The position numbers and the translations under genes were made by a program. Shown piece after piece: positions 25,085-40,563 of a DNA stretch of 64,000 nt. This DNA is from Choricystis sp. odSpoLacu1 (lineage: Eukaryota > Chlorophyta > Trebouxiophyceae): positions 1,054,001-1,118,000 of the forward strand of contig OY253653.1 in the NCBI GenBank assembly GCA_958009055.1. The letters are read 5' to 3'. The notes under the pieces were generated by a model. That model was not told the DNA's origin, did no database searches, and saw only the letters and a list, made by a program, of their open reading frames with translations. How positions within the stretch are numbered: the first letter of the stretch is position 1; each line of letters begins with the position of its first letter.

Positions 25085-25966
25085 TCACCCCCTCCTCTCC
25101 ACCCCCGCCCCGGCGCCACACGTGGTCGCCGCGTCCGCGCGCTGGCCTTCCGCCCAGCGCGCCGCCCTCGCAACCCCCCCCTCCACATCGCCGCACGCGT
25201 CCGCGGCGGCCGCCACGTCGGCCAGGCGGCGCGGGATGGAGGCAAACGTGTCGGCGTGGCCGGGGGAGTAGTCGGCGATCAGGGACAGCTCTAACGATGT
25301 GTAGGCCGCCGCCAGGGCAGCCCGCCGCCCATACCACCGCCCCGCCACCGTGGTGGGCGGCCACCCAGCTGTCGCTGCCGCGTCCGCGATGCGGGCCAGC
25401 TCGGTCAGGGCGGCCGGGATGACGGCGGGGCGGGCCAGGATGGCCAGCGCTTGGGGCCACGTCGCCGCGTGCGGCGCGACCGACTCCAGCCGCCACCCCA
25501 GCACCCGCCCCGCCGCGTCGGCGGGGGTGGGAGCGATTTCCAGCTCGTCCGCGGCAGCCGCGACGCGGGTTTCCAGGGCGTCGTTGGCGGAGCGGACAAA
25601 GGAGAGAACAAGATCCACCTCCCCCCGCCGCACCAACGCGGCGGCCGCGGGGGACAGGCCGGCGGCTTCAGCACCCGCCGCCAAAGCACGCTTGGTCCAC
25701 CCGTGCGTCGGCACCGCGTCCAGGGCGGCGGCCAGGATGGCGGCGCGCGTGTCGTCCGCCTCGCAGTCCAACTCTTCCCCCGACAGGTCGCCCCCCAGGC
25801 CCAGCCAGGCGCGGGCGTCGTTGAAGTTGAAGCGGGCTTCATCGGCGGACGTGTGTGGGGCGCGACGGTGGGTCTGCAGGGTGGGGGCGGCGAGGCGGGG
25901 GTTGGTGGCGAGCGAGAAAGCGGAGCCAGCGCGCGGCGCCAGCGCCAGTGCCAGGCGGGTGAGCAT
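25085..25966 (-). CDS. COQ9: Ubiquinone biosynthesis protein COQ9
   Basis: Single exon, 293 residues. The start MLTRLALALAPRAGSAFSLA is a classic mitochondrial presequence. The body follows COQ9: DDTRAAILAAALDAVPTHGW with the TetR-like helix pair (TKRALAAGAEAAGLSPAAAA), then VLGWRLESVAPHAATWPQAL and the AGWPPTTVAGRWYGRRAALA / AAYTSLELSLIAD block typical of the lipid-binding C-terminal half. COQ9 binds lipid and supports COQ7 in the matrix-side CoQ complex. No introns. Divergent from the photolyase gene across 305 bp, which contains no other recognisable feature. Confidence 0.88.
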   Translation of the reverse strand: MLTRLALALAPRAGSAFSLATNPRLAAPTLQTHRRAPHTSADEARFNFNDARAWLGLGGDLSGEELDCEADDTRAAILAAALDAVPTHGWTKRALAAGAEAAGLSPAAAALVRRGEVDLVLSFVRSANDALETRVAAAADELEIAPTPADAAGRVLGWRLESVAPHAATWPQALAILARPAVIPAALTELARIADAAATAGWPPTTVAGRWYGRRAALAAAYTSLELSLIADYSPGHADTFASIPRRLADVAAAADACGDVEGGVARAARWAEGQRADAATTCGAGAGVERRG

Positions 25967-26271
25967 TGTGGGGTGGGTGGGTGTGGGTGGTGAGTGCGTT
26001 GCAAGCACACCACAGAGCCTGGGCCCACACGACTCACGAGTCGTGGCGGGGGAGAGAGCCAGAACAAAAATGATGCTGGTTTTGTTTTTCAACCACGTCG
26101 TCAATTTCACTTTTAACCACACGCCCGTCAAAACGCCCCTCTCGCAACCCCACGATTCTGCTGCACACCCGCGCCCTGACGTCGGTGCTGCTGCGCTCGC
26201 AGCTGGCCGTCCCCCACTGCTGCTACTCTGCCCGCGCGTTCCGCCCGCCGCGGCCGCGCTCGATCGCCGAA

Positions 26272-27814
26272 ATGGGCAAGCGCAAAGCCCCCGAGACCGC
26301 GGTCAAGCCCGACCCCGACGCGGTCAAGTCCGACCCTGGGTCAGGAGGCGACGACGCCACCCCCCCTCCCACCCGCCGCGTGGAGACGCCCGTCAACGAG
26401 CGCCGCATTCGCGCGCTTAACTCCGCCCCCCCCCCCCCCCGCCGGCTCCGCCGCCCCCGTCCTCTACTGGATGTCGCGCGACCAGCGTCTGGCCGATAAC
26501 TGGGCCCTGCTGGCTGCCGCCCAGGCGGCCGCCGCGTCAAACGCGCCCCTCGGCATCGCGTTCAACCTGGTGCCCGCGTTCCTGGGCGCGGGTGCGCGCC
26601 AGTTTGGGTTCTTGCTGCGCGGCCTGGCCGAGCTGCAGGGTGCGTTGGAGGGGACTGGCATCGCGTTCTTCCTGCTGCGCGGCGACCCGGGGGACACGGT
26701 GCCCGCCCTCGCGTCCCGCGTCGGCGCGGGGCGCGTGTTCACCGACGCCTCCCCCCTGCGCCTGCCCCGCGCCTGGAAAGCGAGGGTGGCTGGTAAATTA
26801 ACCATGCCTTTCCACGAGGTGGACGCCCACAACATCGTGCCCGTGTGGGCGGCGTCCGACAAAAAGGAGGTCGGCGCGCGCACGCTGCGCCCCAGGATCC
26901 ACCGCGCGCTGCCCGAGTTTTTGACCGAGTTTCCGCCGCTGCCGCCTGTGAAGCCGTGGGGGAAAGCAGACGGTCTGCCTGCGCCCGACCCCATCGACTG
27001 GGATGCTGTGATCGGGGAAGCGACGGCCGCGGGGGCGCACGTTCCCGAGGTCACGTGGCTCCCCCCGGGCGAAGCCGCCGCCCGCGCCCGCATGACCGCC
27101 TTCCTGGACGGTCCCACACTGCGCCGCTACGACACCCACCGCAACGACCCGGGCGCGTGCGCGCTGTCCAACCTGTCTCCATACCTCCACTTTGGCCAAC
27201 TCTCTGGCCAGCGCCTCGCGCTGGCCACCCTGGCCGCCAAGCCCCGCGCCCGCACCGCGGCGGACGCTCTCTTCGAAGAGTCAGTCGTGCGCCGCGAACT
27301 GAGCGACAATTATTGTCACTACGAACCGAATTATGACTCTCTCGACGGCGCCGCGGGGTGGGCGCGCGAAACCCTGGAAGTCCACGCCTCCGACCCACGC
27401 GAGTTCACCTACACCCGTGCTGCATTCGAGGCGGGCACCACGCACGACGACCTGTGGAACGCGGCCCAGCGTGAGTTGACGGTGTTGGGCAAGATGCATG
27501 GGTTCATGCGGATGTACTGGGCCAAAAAGATTTTGGAGTGGTCCCCTGATCCTGCCTCCGCCCTCGCCACCGCCATCCACCTGAACGACACCTACGAACT
27601 GGATGGGCGGGACCCGTCCGGCTACGTGGGCTGCATGTGGTCCATCTGTGGCGTGCACGACATGGGGTGGACGGAGCGCAAAGTGTTTGGCAAAATCAGG
27701 TTTATGAACTACAATGGCTGCAAGCGCAAGTTCAACATCCAGGGGTACATTGCTGCGGTGGATGCGGCGTGTGCGCGGGAGGAGGCGGCGAGGCGGGAGC
27801 GGGGTGGTGGGTGA
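26272..27814 (+). CDS. PHR1: Class II CPD photolyase, frame broken at a C15 run
   Basis: The ATG at 26272 opens MGKRKAPETAVKPDPDAVKS, a basic leader, in one frame; after the C15 run at 26426-26440 the conserved enzyme is in the next frame, so one base too many is implied. The joined length would be 513 residues. Family blocks are strong: VLYWMSRDQRLADNWALL at the N-terminal antenna fold, SPYLHFGQLSGQRLAL, RRELSDNYCHYEPNYDSLDG, then GKMHGFMRMYWAKKILEW, GRDPSGYVGCMWSICGVHD and ERKVFGKIRFMNYNGC. These are class II photolyase FAD-binding motifs. The enzyme splits UV-induced cyclobutane pyrimidine dimers with light. A non-ATG or upstream presequence cannot be excluded because the frame stays open upstream. 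Confidence 0.9.
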
Positions 27815-27888
27815 AGAGAGAGAGCCCATGTCTAAACACACCCTTTTCAACGTCCACACACAAAAACAAGTTCAGAATGTTGTCACTA

Positions 27889-28950
27889 TCAGTGAGATGA
27901 AAGGGTTGCACGCCAAACAAGAAAAAAAGACACTGGATGGGCGGAAAGAAATTCAATGAAAAAAGAAGACTCAACCTCCCTCAACTCCTGCTGCCTCCAC
28001 CACCACCACCACCCCTCCTGCTCGCCTGCACCGCCGTCACCGGCCGCCCCGGCGGCCTCGGCGGCGGCGGCCCACCGTTGGCGTCGCTCCACGCGCTGCG
28101 GTCGCCGTCGTCGCCTCCACGCTCCCCCCCCCCACTGATCGTCCCCCCCCCCCCCCCCCCCCCCCTCCACGACCCCCTCCTCCAGGGCGGCCGCCCACTC
28201 GTCATCCGACGACAGCAGGGCGGCCAGCGGAGGGGGCGCCCGCCAGGCGGCTCGATCGCCGAGGGCGCCCCAGGGCACGACGGTGTTGTAGCGGGGGTCG
28301 TGTGAATCAAGCACGACAAACACGGTGGCCGCGGCCAGGGCGGGAGTCGCCGCCAGCAACGGTGCATCCGCGTGCGCAATCGTGTCCAGCACGAGCGCCA
28401 TCTCGCGCTGAAAGATGAGGGAGCGCAGGCGCGGGGGGGCGAGGCGTGCCCACGCGGTTGCGCCGGAAATGTGGCACGCGACGTGGAGGGACGGAGACCC
28501 TCCATCCTCCTCATCCACCCTCCACTCGGCCAGCACTTCGTCGCGCAACAGTTTGACGTACCAGCCGTCGAGTTGGGCGGGGTTGTAGCAGGGGCCGACG
28601 GAGAGGCGGAGGGCGTCGGTCACGTCGTTGTGGGTCAGGGTGTAGCGCCTCGGCGCGTCGGCCGAGGGGGGTGGCCCGGTGGGAGAGTAACCAGGCTCAT
28701 GCGCCACAGCCAGCTTGGCGGGATCGAACAGGGGGCCAGCAAAGAGCGCGGCCGCAGCGCGAGGTGCGGCGCGGAGTGCGCGGCGGCGCGCGGAGGCGCG
28801 CGGGGGCGGCGCGGCGTGTGGTCTTCCGATGGCGGGCGAGGCACGTCTTCCAGAACAGGACGCGAGCGAGCCGGAGACCGCGCGCGCGGGGGGCGGGGGC
28901 GGCGCGCGGCACGACGCCGCGTGGCGAGACGACGAAGAAAGCGCGTGCAT
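27889..28950 (-). CDS. SGR: STAY-GREEN family Mg-dechelatase (chlorophyll breakdown)
   Basis: From the ATG at 28950 the frame runs 353 residues as given. About 70 residues of Ser/Arg/Ala/Pro-rich, acid-free sequence (MHALSSSSRHAASCRAPPPP) form a likely plastid transit peptide. The SGR core follows: LFDPAKLAVAHEPGYSP, RRYTLTHNDVTDALRLSVG, NPAQLDGWYVKLLRDEVLAEW, LHVACHISGATAW, REMALVLDTIAHADAPLL and VFVVLDSHDPRYNTVVPWG. SGR removes Mg from chlorophyll a to give pheophytin a. No Cys-rich C-terminal motif is seen, as in SGR-like members. Beyond about residue 265 the frame passes a G23 run (28143-28165 on the plus strand) and the tail is unreliable; another frame would stop at 27981. Divergent from chlorophyllase. 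Confidence 0.88.
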   Translation of the reverse strand: MHALSSSSRHAASCRAPPPPPARAVSGSLASCSGRRASPAIGRPHAAPPPRASARRRALRAAPRAAAALFAGPLFDPAKLAVAHEPGYSPTGPPPSADAPRRYTLTHNDVTDALRLSVGPCYNPAQLDGWYVKLLRDEVLAEWRVDEEDGGSPSLHVACHISGATAWARLAPPRLRSLIFQREMALVLDTIAHADAPLLAATPALAAATVFVVLDSHDPRYNTVVPWGALGDRAAWRAPPPLAALLSSDDEWAAALEEGVVEGGGGGGGDDQWGGGAWRRRRRPQRVERRQRWAAAAEAAGAAGDGGAGEQEGWWWWWRQQELREVESSFFIEFLSAHPVSFFLVWRATLSSH

Positions 28951-29408
28951 TGGGAGGGGGCGGAGGGAGCCCGCGCCTCGTCAGACGTGTCGTTCGACGC
29001 GTGTGGCCCCGCAGGCTGCCAGCGCAAGGCGGCGGGCGAGGCTGGCGAGGCGAGCGCGCGGGGCAGGGGAGCGCGACACGCAGAGGCGGGAGGGCGACCC
29101 CCCTGCGGGCGAGCGCGCAGACGGGCGCCTGCCTGCCTGCGGTGTGGCGCTCCTCCCGGGGCGCGGACCGAGTTGCGCAGGCAGCGGTTGAGACGCCTGT
29201 GCACACGGCCGGAGAGGGAGAGAGGGCGACCCGCGCGCGGCGCCGCCGCAAAAGAAATCAACACGTGTGTCGCGAAGAAAGACCCGCCGTCCCTTATCCC
29301 CCACACTGTTGCTCCGATTTCGTGTATTCACCGCCTGCTCCCGCGACGGCAGGCTGAGCGTGTGTGTGGCCACGCCACCCTCCAGGCCAGCGAGGAACGC
29401 AGCTCACC
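28951..29408. promoter_or_regulatory. Shared divergent promoter of STAY-GREEN and chlorophyllase, with a G-box
   Basis: 458 bp separate the two ATGs and I find no coding frame with domain content between them. A palindromic ACACGTGT at 29261-29268 contains the G-box core CACGTG (29262-29267), 141 bp before the chlorophyllase start. In land plants STAY-GREEN genes are known targets of G-box-binding bZIP and bHLH factors; that this applies here is inference. The 13-mer CACGTGTGTCGCG is shared with the spacer at 7046-7058. Confidence 0.5.
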
Positions 29409-30584
29409 ATGCTCCCCTCGCGCCGCGTGGCGCTGGCTGCTGGCTTGGCGACCACGGCCGCGTCGCCACCACTGGCAGCCGCCCGCCCCCGTCCGTCCCG
29501 GCCCGCCACGCTGGACACAGGCACGGTACAAGGCGTGCCGGCCACACGCTCCCCTCCCCAACCCACGTGCTCGCTGGATCTGCCTTTTACAGGCTCGGGT
29601 CCCTACAAAACCACGCGCCTCCCTCCTCTGGAACACGTCTGCGCCTCACTCTCCCCCGCCTGCGTCAACAAGCAGTGCGCAGTCACTCTCGAACTGGTCG
29701 TCCCCCGCCGCGACGGTGGCGACGCCTCCTGCCCCCCCCCCCACCCGTCCCCGCTCGCCGTCTTCAGTGGCGGCTTTTTGGCCGGCCGAGACGCCTACAT
29801 GGAGACCGCAGCCAGGCTGGCATCATGGGGGTTTGCTGTCGTCACGTATGATAAAACTGAAACGGCGTTGGATCCGTTGGACGACGTCGTGTCTGCTGAC
29901 GTGGTGCGAGAGCTGTGCGACTATGTGGCCGCCTCCCGCGCCCTCGCCCCGTTAGTCGACGCCTCCCGCCCCTATCTGTGCGGCCACTCGCGAGGCGGCA
30001 AGTTGAGCGTGCTGGCTGCGTCGCGCGACGCAGCCGCCGGCGTGGCTAGGGTGGGGGCGCTCGGACTGATGGATCCGGTCAACAACACGCGCTACGCCCC
30101 TCAAGGCCCCCGCTGCCCGTCCGCCACGGCAGCGCTCAGGTCTGGTGGCGTGCTGGCTCGGGGACCTCCCCTCGTCGTGGTGGGCGCGGGCAAAGAGTCG
30201 GCTGATTGTGCGCCGCTGGACGCAAATTATTCACACTTTTTTGATGCCGCCCCAGGGGCTGCCTGGGAGGTGGTGATCGAGCACTCTGGCCACTTTCAGG
30301 TGCTGGACTCCGCCACTGCCCTGCAGCGGGCGGTGTGCGCGGCGGGGCCGTTGCCTGACGCGGTGGTGAGGGATGCTGCCACCGCCCCCCTCGTCGCGTG
30401 GGGGCGGGCCGCCTTCTTTGGCGATGTTGGCGACGCCGGCGACCTGATGACCCGGTGCGAGGCCGATGTGACAGCCCTGCTGGCGGCGGCGGGTGAAGGC
30501 AAGGCCACGGGCGGGCCACCGTGCCGCGCGCGGCGGAAGCGGGTGCCGCCCGACGCGCGGTCACTGGCGGTGTGGGCAGATTGA
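29409..30584 (+). CDS. CLH: Chlorophyllase family alpha/beta-hydrolase
   Basis: Single exon, 391 residues, start MLPSRRVALAAGLATTAASP, a basic/hydrophobic leader suited to a transit or signal peptide. The alpha/beta-hydrolase core begins near residue 118 (PLAVFSGGFLAGRDAYMETA, RLASWGFAVVTYDK). The nucleophile elbow is YLCGHSRGGKLSVLAA with Ser194; GHSRGG is the chlorophyllase lipase motif. Asp222 (LGLMDPVNNT) and His292 or His295 (IEHSGHFQVLD) complete the expected triad. Chlorophyllase removes the phytol tail from chlorophyll or related pigments. Its divergent partner is the STAY-GREEN Mg-dechelatase, which strengthens the functional call. Related hydrolases of unknown substrate share parts of this pattern, so activity is inferred. 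Confidence 0.8.
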   Translation: MLPSRRVALAAGLATTAASPPLAAARPRPSRPATLDTGTVQGVPATRSPPQPTCSLDLPFTGSGPYKTTRLPPLEHVCASLSPACVNKQCAVTLELVVPRRDGGDASCPPPHPSPLAVFSGGFLAGRDAYMETAARLASWGFAVVTYDKTETALDPLDDVVSADVVRELCDYVAASRALAPLVDASRPYLCGHSRGGKLSVLAASRDAAAGVARVGALGLMDPVNNTRYAPQGPRCPSATAALRSGGVLARGPPLVVVGAGKESADCAPLDANYSHFFDAAPGAAWEVVIEHSGHFQVLDSATALQRAVCAAGPLPDAVVRDAATAPLVAWGRAAFFGDVGDAGDLMTRCEADVTALLAAAGEGKATGGPPCRARRKRVPPDARSLAVWAD

Positions 30585-31121
30585 AGTGAGAGACCGTTGT
30601 GTGTTGTGTGTGTGTGTGTAGTTTTAATAGATTGTTTTGCAAGTCCAAAGAAACATGGTGTGGAGGACTGGTGTTTCTTTGTGCTTGGGGGGGGCTTTGC
30701 ACAGCGGGGAGGTGTACTTTGATGAAAAGTCGAGAAGAAAAAAACGACAAGAAAATGAAAAAGACTCACACCCTCTCTCTCCCTCTCCACTCACTCCATT
30801 TTCGTCCCCCGCCAGGCGATGGGAGCGGGCGTGGTGTGGGCGGCGGCGTTACGTTGTACGGGAAGGGGGGCAAAGAAAAGAGACCGGAAAAAGTAATAGT
30901 GGGAAAAAACACGAACAACATGGGAAAAGATCACGAACAAGGCAGGTTTCGGGAGGGCTCAACGGGGTGGGTAAAATTGTTGTTTTGTGGGTGGTGAGGA
31001 CAGTGTGCGAGTGTGTTTTTTTCCGCCGGTCTGAATAAGAAGAAAAAAATAGGTATGAGTCTGGAGAAAAAAGAAGCCAAACACACACACACACACACGC
31101 GCGCGCGCCTGCATCCACCTC
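30585..31121. other. Convergent 3' region between chlorophyllase and the secreted unknown
   Basis: A 537-base stretch with AT-richer sequence than average and A-rich blocks (30725-30765, 30890-30935, 31035-31080). It ends in a short CA/CG repeat at 31080-31108. Presumed 3' UTRs of the two converging genes. No gene is recognised. Confidence 0.6.
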
Positions 31122-32184
31122 TCACACAGCCGCCGGCTTGGACGCGGCGGGAATCTTGACCGCGCGGTTGACGAATTGACCATCGACTTCCGCGGTCGTG
31201 ACGAGCGTCGCGCGCCCCGCCCCCATCTCCGGCTTGACGGTCGCACGCGCGGCCGTCGCATCACCCACAGCCGCGCCAAGGGCTTTAAGGTCGCCCTTTT
31301 TGAGGTCGGCGCGGAAGGAATCAGCCGCCGCTTTGGTGGGGAGAGAGATGAAACCTTCGTAAAAAGCACACTCGCGCGCCTCCTCCCCCGGGCAGTCCAC
31401 GCCCTTGAGCGCGTACTTCTGCCCCTGATCCACCGCCACCGTGACGAAAGGGTACGGGGGGGCGGGCCTCGCGTTTTCGGGCAGCTTGGCCCACGCAGCC
31501 AGGCCGTCGCGCAGGCCGAGCGAGTAGGGGCCGTACTCCAGCGTCGGCCGCACCGCCGCCTCGGTGGCCGTGATGTTGGGCCCGGACAGCATGATGGTGT
31601 ACCCCACCCGGTGCTTGGTCCAGTCAATGGCGGGGGCGGCGGAGGGGCCGGGGGCGGCCGCCGCGCCGGCGGGGGGGGCGGCCGCGCCCGCGACCGCGGC
31701 GACCACCAGGGACGAGGGTTGGGGGGCGGGCTCGGGGGAGGGCGCGAGCTTGGCGGCGGCGGCGGTGGCCGCCAGGAGGGCGAGCAGGACTGTGTGTGGG
31801 GTGGGTGAGACGGAAGGAGGGAAGCAGGGCTCACCCTGCTTCCCTCCCAGGAACGCGCGGGCGTGGGAGGCCAAACGACTCGTTTGGCCTTGCGACTGGC
31901 TTGGTGTCGCGCCGTCCTGCCCGTGCGCGCGTGGCCCGCCCCCTCTCTATCCCCATTCCCACGCTCGCGGTGGCGTGCGCGCGCACCGTTCGCGTTGCGT
32001 GGGCGGAGGGGGGGCCGATTGGGGGGCGGGGGAGCCACACAGGCGGCGAAGAGAGGAGAGTCCGGCAGACCGGCGCGGCGCCGGCGGGCCACGCTGCCCG
32101 CCCGCCTTGTCCCCGTTTCCGCCCCCCGATCGCGCGCCACCAACGCATCAGCCACGCCACACACTCACCGCGAGCGGCACGCAT
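31122..32184 (-). CDS. Secreted or lumenal protein of unknown function
   Basis: Two exons on the minus strand, 32169-32184 and 31122-31789, give 227 residues. The 16-base first exon joins to read MRAARVLLALLAATAAAAKL, a textbook signal peptide, which strongly supports the splice (GTGAGT donor, CACACAG acceptor, 379-base intron). After an Ala/Pro-rich linker comes a conserved-looking domain: DWTKHRVGYTIMLSGPNITA, YGPYSLGLRDGLAAWAKLPE and VTVAVDQGQKYALKGVDCPG, with two Cys in the last part (DCPG and RECAFYEG). I do not recognise the family. The C terminus is Lys/Ala-rich. Divergent from the HECT ligase gene with 170 bp between starts. Confidence 0.6.
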
Positions 32185-39132: not shown

Positions 39133-39915
39133 TCAATCATCCCGCACCAACACAAACAGCGTCCCCTTGTTGCCACGGCTCAACCGCACGCGCCCCTCCC
39201 CCTTGGGCGCCAGGTACGTGACATCGATCCACCCCTTGACCTCGTCCCCCAGCCCCGTGCTCTGCAAGAACTTAAAGGGGACGAGATACGGCACCGTGAC
39301 CGGCAGAGCTTTGAACTTGAAGTAGGCACGGTCAAACGCAAAGTCGATGCGGCGCGTTGGGTCGGCAGGGGGGCCCGTCTGCGACTTGCCAAACAGGGGC
39401 AGGCCCGCCCCCCGCCTCGGCGTGAACCCCGGCAGAGGAGCCACCGTCGTGCTGGCTTCAGCCTCCACGCGCAGCACGCCTGCAGAGCCCAGGGTGACGA
39501 CGTTGGTGACGCGCTGCGGGGTGCCGTCACCCTTTGCCAGCTCAATCTCTTGGTGCACGGTGAAGGAGTCGCGCGCCGTGAACGCTCGCTGGATGGGGGA
39601 CGATGTGCCAGGTCTTGTGGTGAAGACTAACAGCCACTTTCCTTCAACATCCTGGGCAGAGGCGGGGGCAGGGATGCCGCCGTCGGCTTCTAGAGTGGCC
39701 ACCGCTGCTGCCACGGCCGCGGCAGCTTGATCAGACAGCCCGCCCGCCCCCCTACCGGCCACGCCATCGATGGCGGCCAGCAGGGAGGCTTCAGCGGCGG
39801 TCAGGGTAGCGGCTCGGGCGGAGGGGAGCGCGGCGGGGGGGCGGGGCAGGGCGCGGCGGGGGGCGCGGGCCGGGACGATGAACGGTTGAGCGTGGGCGAG
39901 CACAGGGCGAGCCAT
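39133..39915 (-). CDS. Plastid lipid-associated protein / fibrillin
   Basis: Single exon, 260 residues. The leader MARPVLAHAQPFIVPARAPR and on is Arg/Ala/Pro-rich, as in plastid transit peptides. The PAP/fibrillin core follows: SLLAAIDGVAGRGAGGLSDQ, then VEGKWLLVFTTRPGTSSPIQ (the conserved 'W-L-L-F-T' start of the barrel), RVTNVVTLGSAGVLRVEAEA, RIDFAFDRAYFKFKALPVTV, PYLVPF and GWIDVTYLAPKGEGRVRLSR near the end, with the final NKGTLFVL strand. Fibrillins bind lipids in plastoglobules and thylakoids. This is one of several plastid markers in the window. Stop on the minus strand is close to the TrmA-type gene start (166 bp). Confidence 0.85.
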   Translation of the reverse strand: MARPVLAHAQPFIVPARAPRRALPRPPAALPSARAATLTAAEASLLAAIDGVAGRGAGGLSDQAAAAVAAAVATLEADGGIPAPASAQDVEGKWLLVFTTRPGTSSPIQRAFTARDSFTVHQEIELAKGDGTPQRVTNVVTLGSAGVLRVEAEASTTVAPLPGFTPRRGAGLPLFGKSQTGPPADPTRRIDFAFDRAYFKFKALPVTVPYLVPFKFLQSTGLGDEVKGWIDVTYLAPKGEGRVRLSRGNKGTLFVLVRDD

Positions 39916-40563
39916 TGCGCGATTGAGAGGGGGGGGGAGGAGCACGAGAAACGTGGACAACGAGAGTAGTGGGGCGAGAACGGAAAAAAGCAGTGGCAGC
40001 GCGTCGGCGCGCGCGCGCTCTCTCACTCTTGCGTTTGTTCGCGCAAAACATTCTGGCGGTTGGCGCGCGGCCACCCTCCGTCACTCCAGGTACGTGTCGC
40101 CAAAGTTACGCACTGCTTATTTGGAGGTGCAATGCGAGGGTGGCAGCAGCGAATGCGGGGCGGGCGGAGCCCCCCCGACGCGCCGGGTCAACCTGGCTCG
40201 CTTGGGGCGCCACCATTTGGCTGTGGCCGGGCGCCTTATGCGGCCTCCCACCGCCCCCATTGACGCCACCTGGGTGTTGATGCATCAACACCGAGGCGCA
40301 GCAGTGGTGGTGGTGGGGAAAGAGAGCGCAGGCGGGCGCGGGGAGACCCGACACGCTCCCGTTGCGTGTGCCGCTAGCGCGCCGCCAGCCCCACGCGCAC
40401 CCACACACGCCTTCCCACCCTCCAATTGCGCGCACTATGGCGTAGTGCCAATCTGTGTTTGCGTCTGGGGCACGTGAAGCGTGGAGAAAAGGCACACACC
40501 ACTCACAACGCTTCCCCCCCCGCCCACCCACCAAACAACAGCTCGACGCCCCACCCACCCACA
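39916..40563. promoter_or_regulatory. Divergent spacer between fibrillin and the GH5 gene
   Basis: 648 bp between two start codons, the longest divergent spacer in the window. It must contain both promoters. Frames across it on both strands are open for up to about 180 codons but read as low-complexity sequence. A CA-rich block and the CCACCCACCCACA leader lie just before the GH5 ATG. No specific element can be named. Confidence 0.5.

What the first reader, a model, noticed from the sequence alone, without database searches (positions are those of the whole stretch)
27889..30584. STAY-GREEN and chlorophyllase form a divergent chlorophyll-breakdown gene pair
The sequence shows an SGR-family Mg-dechelatase (LHVACHISG core) on the minus strand and a chlorophyllase-type hydrolase (GHSRGG, Ser194/Asp222/His) on the plus strand, starts facing away across 458 bp. 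Removal of Mg and removal of phytol are both chlorophyll-catabolic steps. In land plants, as far as I know, these genes are not neighbours. A shared promoter would couple two pigment-breakdown steps, a small metabolic cluster I do not know to be described in algae. The functional coupling is inference.
Basis: partly seen in the sequence, partly recalled or inferred. Interest (0 to 1): 0.8.

Follow-up and report, generated by a model that had tools for sequence, protein, structure and literature searches.

The report
Divergent STAY-GREEN and chlorophyllase gene pair
In a compact green-alga genome, the gene for the enzyme that pulls magnesium out of chlorophyll sits back to back with a gene for a chlorophyll-tail-cutting type of enzyme, and a close relative probably has both genes together too, but whether they are switched on together is not shown.

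Summary
The minus strand carries a STAY-GREEN (SGR) Mg-dechelatase gene (PF12638, 4e-33), the only match in the genome search. It keeps the six residues named as catalytic or structural in the bacterial homologue. The plus strand carries a chlorophyllase-family hydrolase (PF07224, 1e-13; wheat chlorophyllase is its best PDB match by sequence and fold) with Ser194/Asp222/His295. The starts are 458 bp apart. Corrections: the SGR frame slips at a 10-C run, so the stop is most likely 27981, not 27889; divergent neighbours are ordinary here (9 of 27 ORF pairs); the hydrolase has a diverged paralogue. Linkage: the closest relatives of both proteins (92% and 89%) list the same 58,085-base contig, and Chlorella variabilis and Myrmecia bisecta each list one contig length for both (distances unknown). 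No chlorophyllase-profile match lies beside 79 prokaryotic SGR loci. Against a plain 'breakdown' reading, a review reports that Chlamydomonas SGR serves photosystem II formation, not degradation, and that Arabidopsis CLH1 serves photosystem II repair. Coupled photosystem-pigment turnover is at least as likely as bulk catabolism. Co-regulation was not testable; chance adjacency remains nearly as likely. Seven relevant searches of an open library listed no paper on such a pair.

The parts
27981..28950 (-). STAY-GREEN (SGR) family Mg-dechelatase gene, single exon; C-terminal end corrected from 27889 to 27981 because the frame slips at a homopolymer
   Evidence: Pfam PF12638 4.3e-33; PDB 7y5y Staygreen domain 8e-26; only PF12638 match found in the genome; C-terminus from comparison of P0020 with ORF 27981-28514
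28124..28133 (.). 10-C run where the SGR reading frame slips relative to the nearest relative (a 23-C run lies at 28143-28165)
   Evidence: runs; frames, compared by eye
28951..29408 (.). 458-bp gap between the two start codons; candidate shared promoter; 73% GC, no ATG on either strand, no TATA[AT]A box, one match (itself) in the genome
   Evidence: repeats in the gap are few and short
29409..30584 (+). chlorophyllase-family alpha/beta hydrolase, 391 aa, single exon, Ser194/Asp222/His295
   Evidence: PF07224 1.3e-13; wheat chlorophyllase 8fjd best by sequence and by fold; triad invariant in alignment A1
29409..29486 (+). N-terminus of the hydrolase (MLPSRRVALAAGLATTAASPPLAAAR): twin arginine plus hydrophobic stretch, resembling a Tat/signal-type leader
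   Evidence: N-termini printed: twin arginine directly before a hydrophobic stretch in 7 of 11, judged by eye (18 proteins examined; 7 had no printable N-terminus)

Best explanation
Shown: two adjacent, divergently oriented nuclear genes of a trebouxiophyte-like green alga encode an SGR-type Mg-dechelatase and a chlorophyllase-family hydrolase (by family and residues; no activity shown). The nearest relatives of both list one 58-kb contig length. Inferred: the 458-bp gap acts as a common promoter region, so that removal of Mg (chlorophyll a to pheophytin a) and cleavage of the phytol ester (chlorophyll or pheophytin to chlorophyllide or pheophorbide) rise together when pigment is freed from photosystems. 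That would happen above all in photosystem II assembly and repair, and possibly in bulk degreening.
For: Families and catalytic residues. SGR R101, Y103, T104, D109, D137 and D195 match R26, Y28, T29, D34, D62 and D114 of the bacterial enzyme (alignment; residues from PMC8531759, abstract and passages). Linkage: P0002 and P0020 both list a 58,085-base contig from one source; P0018 and P0042 (Chlorella variabilis) both list 2,291,561; P0017 and P0102 (Myrmecia bisecta) both list 5,582,648 (lists intersected). Apart from the window's own genome these are the 3 of 17 other chlorophyllase hits whose contig length recurs in the SGR lists. For C. variabilis a shared scaffold has about 5% chance (2.29 of 46.2 Mb; genome size). 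Function: SGR in Chlamydomonas PSII formation, AtCLH1 in PSII repair, CLH able to dephytylate pheophytin in vitro (PMC8621299, passages). No clear pheophytinase was seen in the genome (inconclusive).
Against: No expression data. Myrmecia locus tags (003159, 008273) are not consecutive, so if tags follow position the genes are not adjacent there. Trebouxia sp. C0006 lists CLH and SGR on contigs of different length; the locus-tag series differ, so these are probably two assemblies, but if one, it is a counter-example. Divergent spacing under 650 bp is common in this window. The hydrolase N-terminus looks like a Tat or secretory leader, while SGR has a plastid-transit-like N-terminus, so the two proteins may sit in different compartments. 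No promoter motif was found in the gap.
Confidence: 0.42

Rival explanations
1. Chance neighbours. In a compact 14.6-Mb genome (28 candidate ORFs of 150 codons or more in 64 kb) some genes of related function will adjoin; linkage in the close relative is simple common descent, without co-regulation.
For: 9 of 27 neighbouring ORF pairs in the window are divergent, six of them with frame-to-frame gaps under 650 bp. No wider pigment cluster: the 9 PaO-family hits all lie on other contigs. No motif in the gap. The pair was picked after reading a whole window, so it is a selected observation.
Against: Same-contig placement also indicated in Chlorella variabilis and Myrmecia bisecta, which are more distant (CLH 46-47% identity to the window protein).
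Confidence: 0.38
2. One reading: a dedicated bulk chlorophyll-catabolism pair, used for degreening under nitrogen starvation or darkness.
For: SGR makes pheophytin; CLH can dephytylate chlorophyll and pheophytin (PMC8621299 and PMC9570282, passages). [quoted passage not shown]
Against: In Chlamydomonas SGR is reported not to act in chlorophyll degradation; plant CLH is reported not to be involved in senescence breakdown (PMC8702186, abstract and passages).
Confidence: 0.12
3. The hydrolase belongs to the chlorophyllase family by descent but acts on other esters, perhaps outside the stroma; the neighbourhood to SGR has no metabolic meaning.
For: Only 20-22% identity to wheat chlorophyllase and nearly as close in fold to PETases and cutinases; with the single sequence, a Streptomyces-type lipase scores almost as well as chlorophyllase (1jfr 8.2e-7 against 8fjd 1.9e-7). 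Leader with twin arginine. A second family member exists at C8:157236. Tomato SlCLH2 and SlCLH3 showed very low activity on chlorophyll (PMC9570282, passage); Chlamydomonas CLH1-GFP was reported outside the chloroplast (PMC8702186, passage).
Against: The profile of 18 sequences finds chlorophyllase first by a wide margin (5e-17 against 4.7e-8 for the next entry). GHSRGG, DPV and the C-A-P-x-D-x-N segment are shared with 8fjd.
Confidence: 0.08

Closest known systems
STAY-GREEN / SGR Mg-dechelatase (Pfam PF12638; Chlamydomonas SGR, bacterial AbSGR-h; PDB 7y5y Staygreen domain)
   Same: Core domain, YTLTHND and RDEVLAEW blocks, the six residues named as catalytic or structural in AbSGR-h
   Different: Long low-complexity C-terminus; the Cys-rich C-terminal motif of land-plant SGR (recalled) was not tested
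Chlorophyllase CLH (Pfam PF07224; wheat chlorophyllase PDB 8fjd)
   Same: GHSRGG lipase motif, Ser-Asp-His triad, best PDB match by sequence and by fold
   Different: Algal clade with its own N-terminal LEHxC block and, in 7 of 11 printed N-termini, a twin-arginine/hydrophobic leader; 20-22% identity to the wheat enzyme; activity unknown
Divergent gene pairs sharing a promoter region / small metabolic gene clusters in eukaryotes (general kind, recalled)
   Same: Two head-to-head genes with related functions and a short gap
   Different: No co-expression evidence; only two genes; no SGR-CLH pair seen in the listings of seven relevant searches

Membership tests
STAY-GREEN Mg-dechelatase | Staygreen domain above the curated cut-off | tested here: met
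   114.7 bits against cut-off 27
STAY-GREEN Mg-dechelatase | Catalytic Asp residues (D34, D62 of AbSGR-h) and structural R26, Y28, T29, D114 | tested here: met
   Aligned to D109, D137, R101, Y103, T104, D195 (residues from PMC8531759)
STAY-GREEN Mg-dechelatase | Mg-dechelatase activity on chlorophyll a | not testable with these tools
   needs an assay
Chlorophyllase (CLH) | PF07224 above the curated cut-off | tested here: met
   50.9 bits against cut-off 26; PETase model 23 bits, below its cut-off of 28
Chlorophyllase (CLH) | GHSxG lipase motif and Ser-Asp-His triad | tested here: met
   S194, D222, H295, invariant in the 18 rows of A1, aligned with 8fjd
Chlorophyllase (CLH) | Esterase activity on chlorophyll | not testable with these tools
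   needs an assay; the clade was not tied to the assayed Chlamydomonas CLH1
Bidirectional-promoter gene pair | Head-to-head starts with a short gap | tested here: met
   458 bp, no ATG between
Bidirectional-promoter gene pair | Co-expression from a shared regulatory region | not testable with these tools
   no expression data; no motif found
Conserved metabolic gene cluster | Linkage kept across related species | tested here: inconclusive
   equal contig lengths for CLH and SGR in the nearest relative, C. variabilis and M. bisecta; unequal for Trebouxia sp. C0006, probably two assemblies; distance and orientation unknown

The most novel reading that the evidence does not exclude
An SGR-chlorophyllase linkage is an old trait of trebouxiophyte algae. 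A bidirectional promoter couples Mg removal on the stromal side with phytol removal by a Tat-exported, lumen-side chlorophyllase, to recycle the pigments of damaged photosystem II rather than to degreen the cell.
Probability: 0.1. Interest if true: 0.72.

Novelty: new member of a known kind. Interest (0 to 1): 0.42.

Why it matters
What chlorophyllase and SGR do in algae is an open question: both are named for chlorophyll breakdown, but the genetics in Chlamydomonas and Arabidopsis reported in the reviews points to photosystem II formation and repair. A natural head-to-head pair that is kept in relatives would give a direct genetic handle: one promoter fragment and two reporters would show whether the two steps are regulated together and under which condition.

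Tried and rejected
Wider chlorophyll cluster: not seen. Of 28 candidate ORFs of 150 codons or more, 23 were scanned in Pfam, the pair included; none of the other 21 is a chlorophyll-catabolic enzyme. The PaO family has 9 hits, none on C5. RCC reductase gave no match, but the tool warns that this does not show absence.

Linkage in prokaryotes: 229 genome contigs stretches encode an SGR relative, 79 distinct loci were kept. 0 of 2257 ORFs in these match the chlorophyllase profile at E 0.1, while 80 match the SGR profile, the positive control. The other candidate stretches were not examined.

Viral-contig scans with P0020, A2 and A1 found no relative, so no DNA of a relative could be read and no promoter comparison was made. 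No Rfam family reached its gathering score in 26000-32000. A pheophytinase was sought among Abhydrolase hits by motif: none clear, but genes with introns would be missed. The only paper holding chlorophyllase, thylakoid lumen and twin-arginine together (listing only) was not read. One search scored only the 7997 candidates sharing most words, probably swamped by low-complexity words, so many chlorophyllases may be missing from its 18 hits; one search was limited likewise (7990 scored, 52 hits); one search listed 120 of 345.

Full report
What is there. On the minus strand, ATG 28950 opens an ORF with a Staygreen domain (PF12638, 4.3e-33, residues 75-232, profile positions 2-146 of 147). The one Staygreen entry among its PDB matches, 7y5y, scores 8e-26. 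It is the only PF12638 match found in the 14.6-Mb, 19-contig genome. On the plus strand, ATG 29409 opens a 391-aa ORF with a chlorophyllase domain (PF07224, 1.3e-13). Its best PDB sequence match is wheat chlorophyllase 8fjd (1.9e-7), with a lipase close behind (1jfr, 8.2e-7). A profile of 18 sequences separates them better: 8fjd 5e-17, next entry 4.7e-8. The predicted model (mean pLDDT 80.8) also finds 8fjd first by fold, with PETases and cutinases close behind. The gap is 458 bp, with no ATG on either strand.

Correction of the SGR end. The nearest relative, P0020, ends in a tail that the window encodes in a different frame, ORF 27981-28514; 37 of the last 40 residues agree. By eye the frames part at a 10-C run at 28124-28133 (a 23-C run lies just upstream in the gene). 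The stop is therefore most likely 27981. My notebook entry blamed the 23-C run; the comparison of frames points to the 10-C run.

Catalytic residues of SGR. In PMC8531759 (abstract and passages) D34 and D62 are essential for catalysis and R26, Y28, T29 and D114 for structure in the bacterial homologue. The alignment places these on D109, D137, R101, Y103, T104 and D195 of the window protein (residues checked): all six are kept.

Which organism. The named chlorophyllase hits are Symbiochloris, Trebouxia, Micractinium, Chlorella, Myrmecia and Klebsormidium. Size, contig number and GC (about 69% in the window) resemble Medakamo hakoo (15.8 Mb, 18 contigs, 72.7% GC; PMC9871001, passages). A trebouxiophyte of the Choricystis-Medakamo kind is an inference, not a test.

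Is the linkage more than chance? Geometry alone says little: of 27 neighbouring pairs among 28 candidate ORFs, 9 are divergent and six of these have frame-to-frame gaps under 650 bp. Better evidence comes from contig lengths. The best relatives of the two proteins (P0002, 92% over 67% of the query; P0020, 89% over 77%) both list a 58,085-base contig from the same source. Chlorella variabilis CLH and SGR both list 2,291,561, and Myrmecia bisecta CLH and SGR both list 5,582,648. Intersecting the 18 CLH lengths with the 143 distinct SGR lengths gives these three and the window's own genome. I know of no listed assembly that plainly disagrees, but Trebouxia sp. C0006 has CLH and SGR on contigs of different length; the locus-tag series differ (ACH3X3, WJX82), so they are probably two assemblies, and the case could not be judged. 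For the remaining CLH hits no SGR of the same assembly was listed or could be recognised. Limits: equal lengths stand in for identity of the contig, distances and orientation are unknown, and the Myrmecia locus tags are not consecutive. may have missed many chlorophyllases and one search showed 120 of 345 hits.

No wider cluster was seen. The PaO-family genes (9 hits) lie on other contigs, and none of the 21 other window ORFs scanned in Pfam belongs to the pathway (5 ORFs unscanned). A second, diverged chlorophyllase relative, split over two frames, lies at C8:157236. In 79 prokaryotic SGR loci (of 229 candidate stretches) with up to 6 kb on each side no ORF matches the chlorophyllase profile, so the pairing was not seen in those prokaryotes.

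How it most likely works. Shown are two enzymes by family and residues, and their adjacency. Inferred is coupling. In the review PMC8621299 (passages) SGR removes Mg from chlorophyll a; in Chlamydomonas it is reported to serve photosystem II formation rather than degradation; Arabidopsis CLH1 is reported to act in photosystem II repair; and CLH can dephytylate pheophytin in vitro. I therefore prefer coupled turnover of photosystem pigment over bulk breakdown, without excluding the latter. [quoted passage not shown]

A point against simple channelling. In 7 of 11 chlorophyllase N-termini that could be printed (18 proteins examined), a twin arginine stands directly before a hydrophobic stretch, judged by eye, as in Tat leaders. 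In the window protein this begins at residue 5, leaving no room for a plastid transit peptide; no upstream ATG exists in the gap. The protein could be lumenal, secretory or mis-started. SGR has a transit-peptide-like Ala/Arg/Ser/Pro-rich N-terminus. The two enzymes may thus work on opposite sides of a membrane. No targeting predictor was available.

Literature. Ten searches of the open PMC library were made; seven bear on the pair, one on lumenal targeting, one on Medakamo and one on bacterial SGR. None of the listings named an SGR-chlorophyllase gene pair; most listed papers were not opened, and subscription journals are mostly not held. Passages only were read of seven papers: PMC9871001, PMC8702186, PMC8531759, PMC8621299, PMC2716323, PMC5853334 and PMC9570282.

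Verdict. A real and probably lineage-conserved divergent pair of two chlorophyll-modifying enzyme families; co-regulation is plausible but unproven, and chance adjacency remains nearly as likely.

Noticed in passing
G000:C5:1133150-1133944 (L093), about 49 kb from the pair and 15 kb beyond the window: An alpha/beta hydrolase with GNSLGS and GGMNNK motifs that resembles chlorophyll dephytylase CLD1 (motif recalled, not tested); a third dephytylase-type gene, on the same contig as the pair.
   Followed up: partly
G000:C8:157236-157511 (L003): A second chlorophyllase-family gene, diverged, with GHSRGGK and a C-terminal part in another frame or exon.
   Followed up: partly
window 29409-29486 and homologues P0003, P0004, P0008, P0010, P0012, P0016: Twin-arginine plus hydrophobic leader in 7 of 11 printed chlorophyllase N-termini, suggesting Tat-dependent lumenal targeting, which none of the paper passages I read mentions.
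   Followed up: partly
window 26471-27814 (+): DNA photolyase/cryptochrome-type gene converging on SGR; with the corrected SGR stop the 3' gap is 166 bp.
   Followed up: no
window 25088-26302 (-) and 26180-27811 (+): COQ9 gene head-to-head with the photolyase gene, open frames overlapping: another tight divergent pair of unrelated function, a useful negative control.
   Followed up: no
window 39136-40080 (-): Plastoglobule-type PAP/fibrillin gene about 9 kb from the pair.
   Followed up: no
P0001 and P0019 against G000:C5: The protein database lists the window's own two proteins on a 631,870-base contig, while the genome held here has them on a contig longer than 1.1 Mb; probably a second assembly, not explained.
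   Followed up: no
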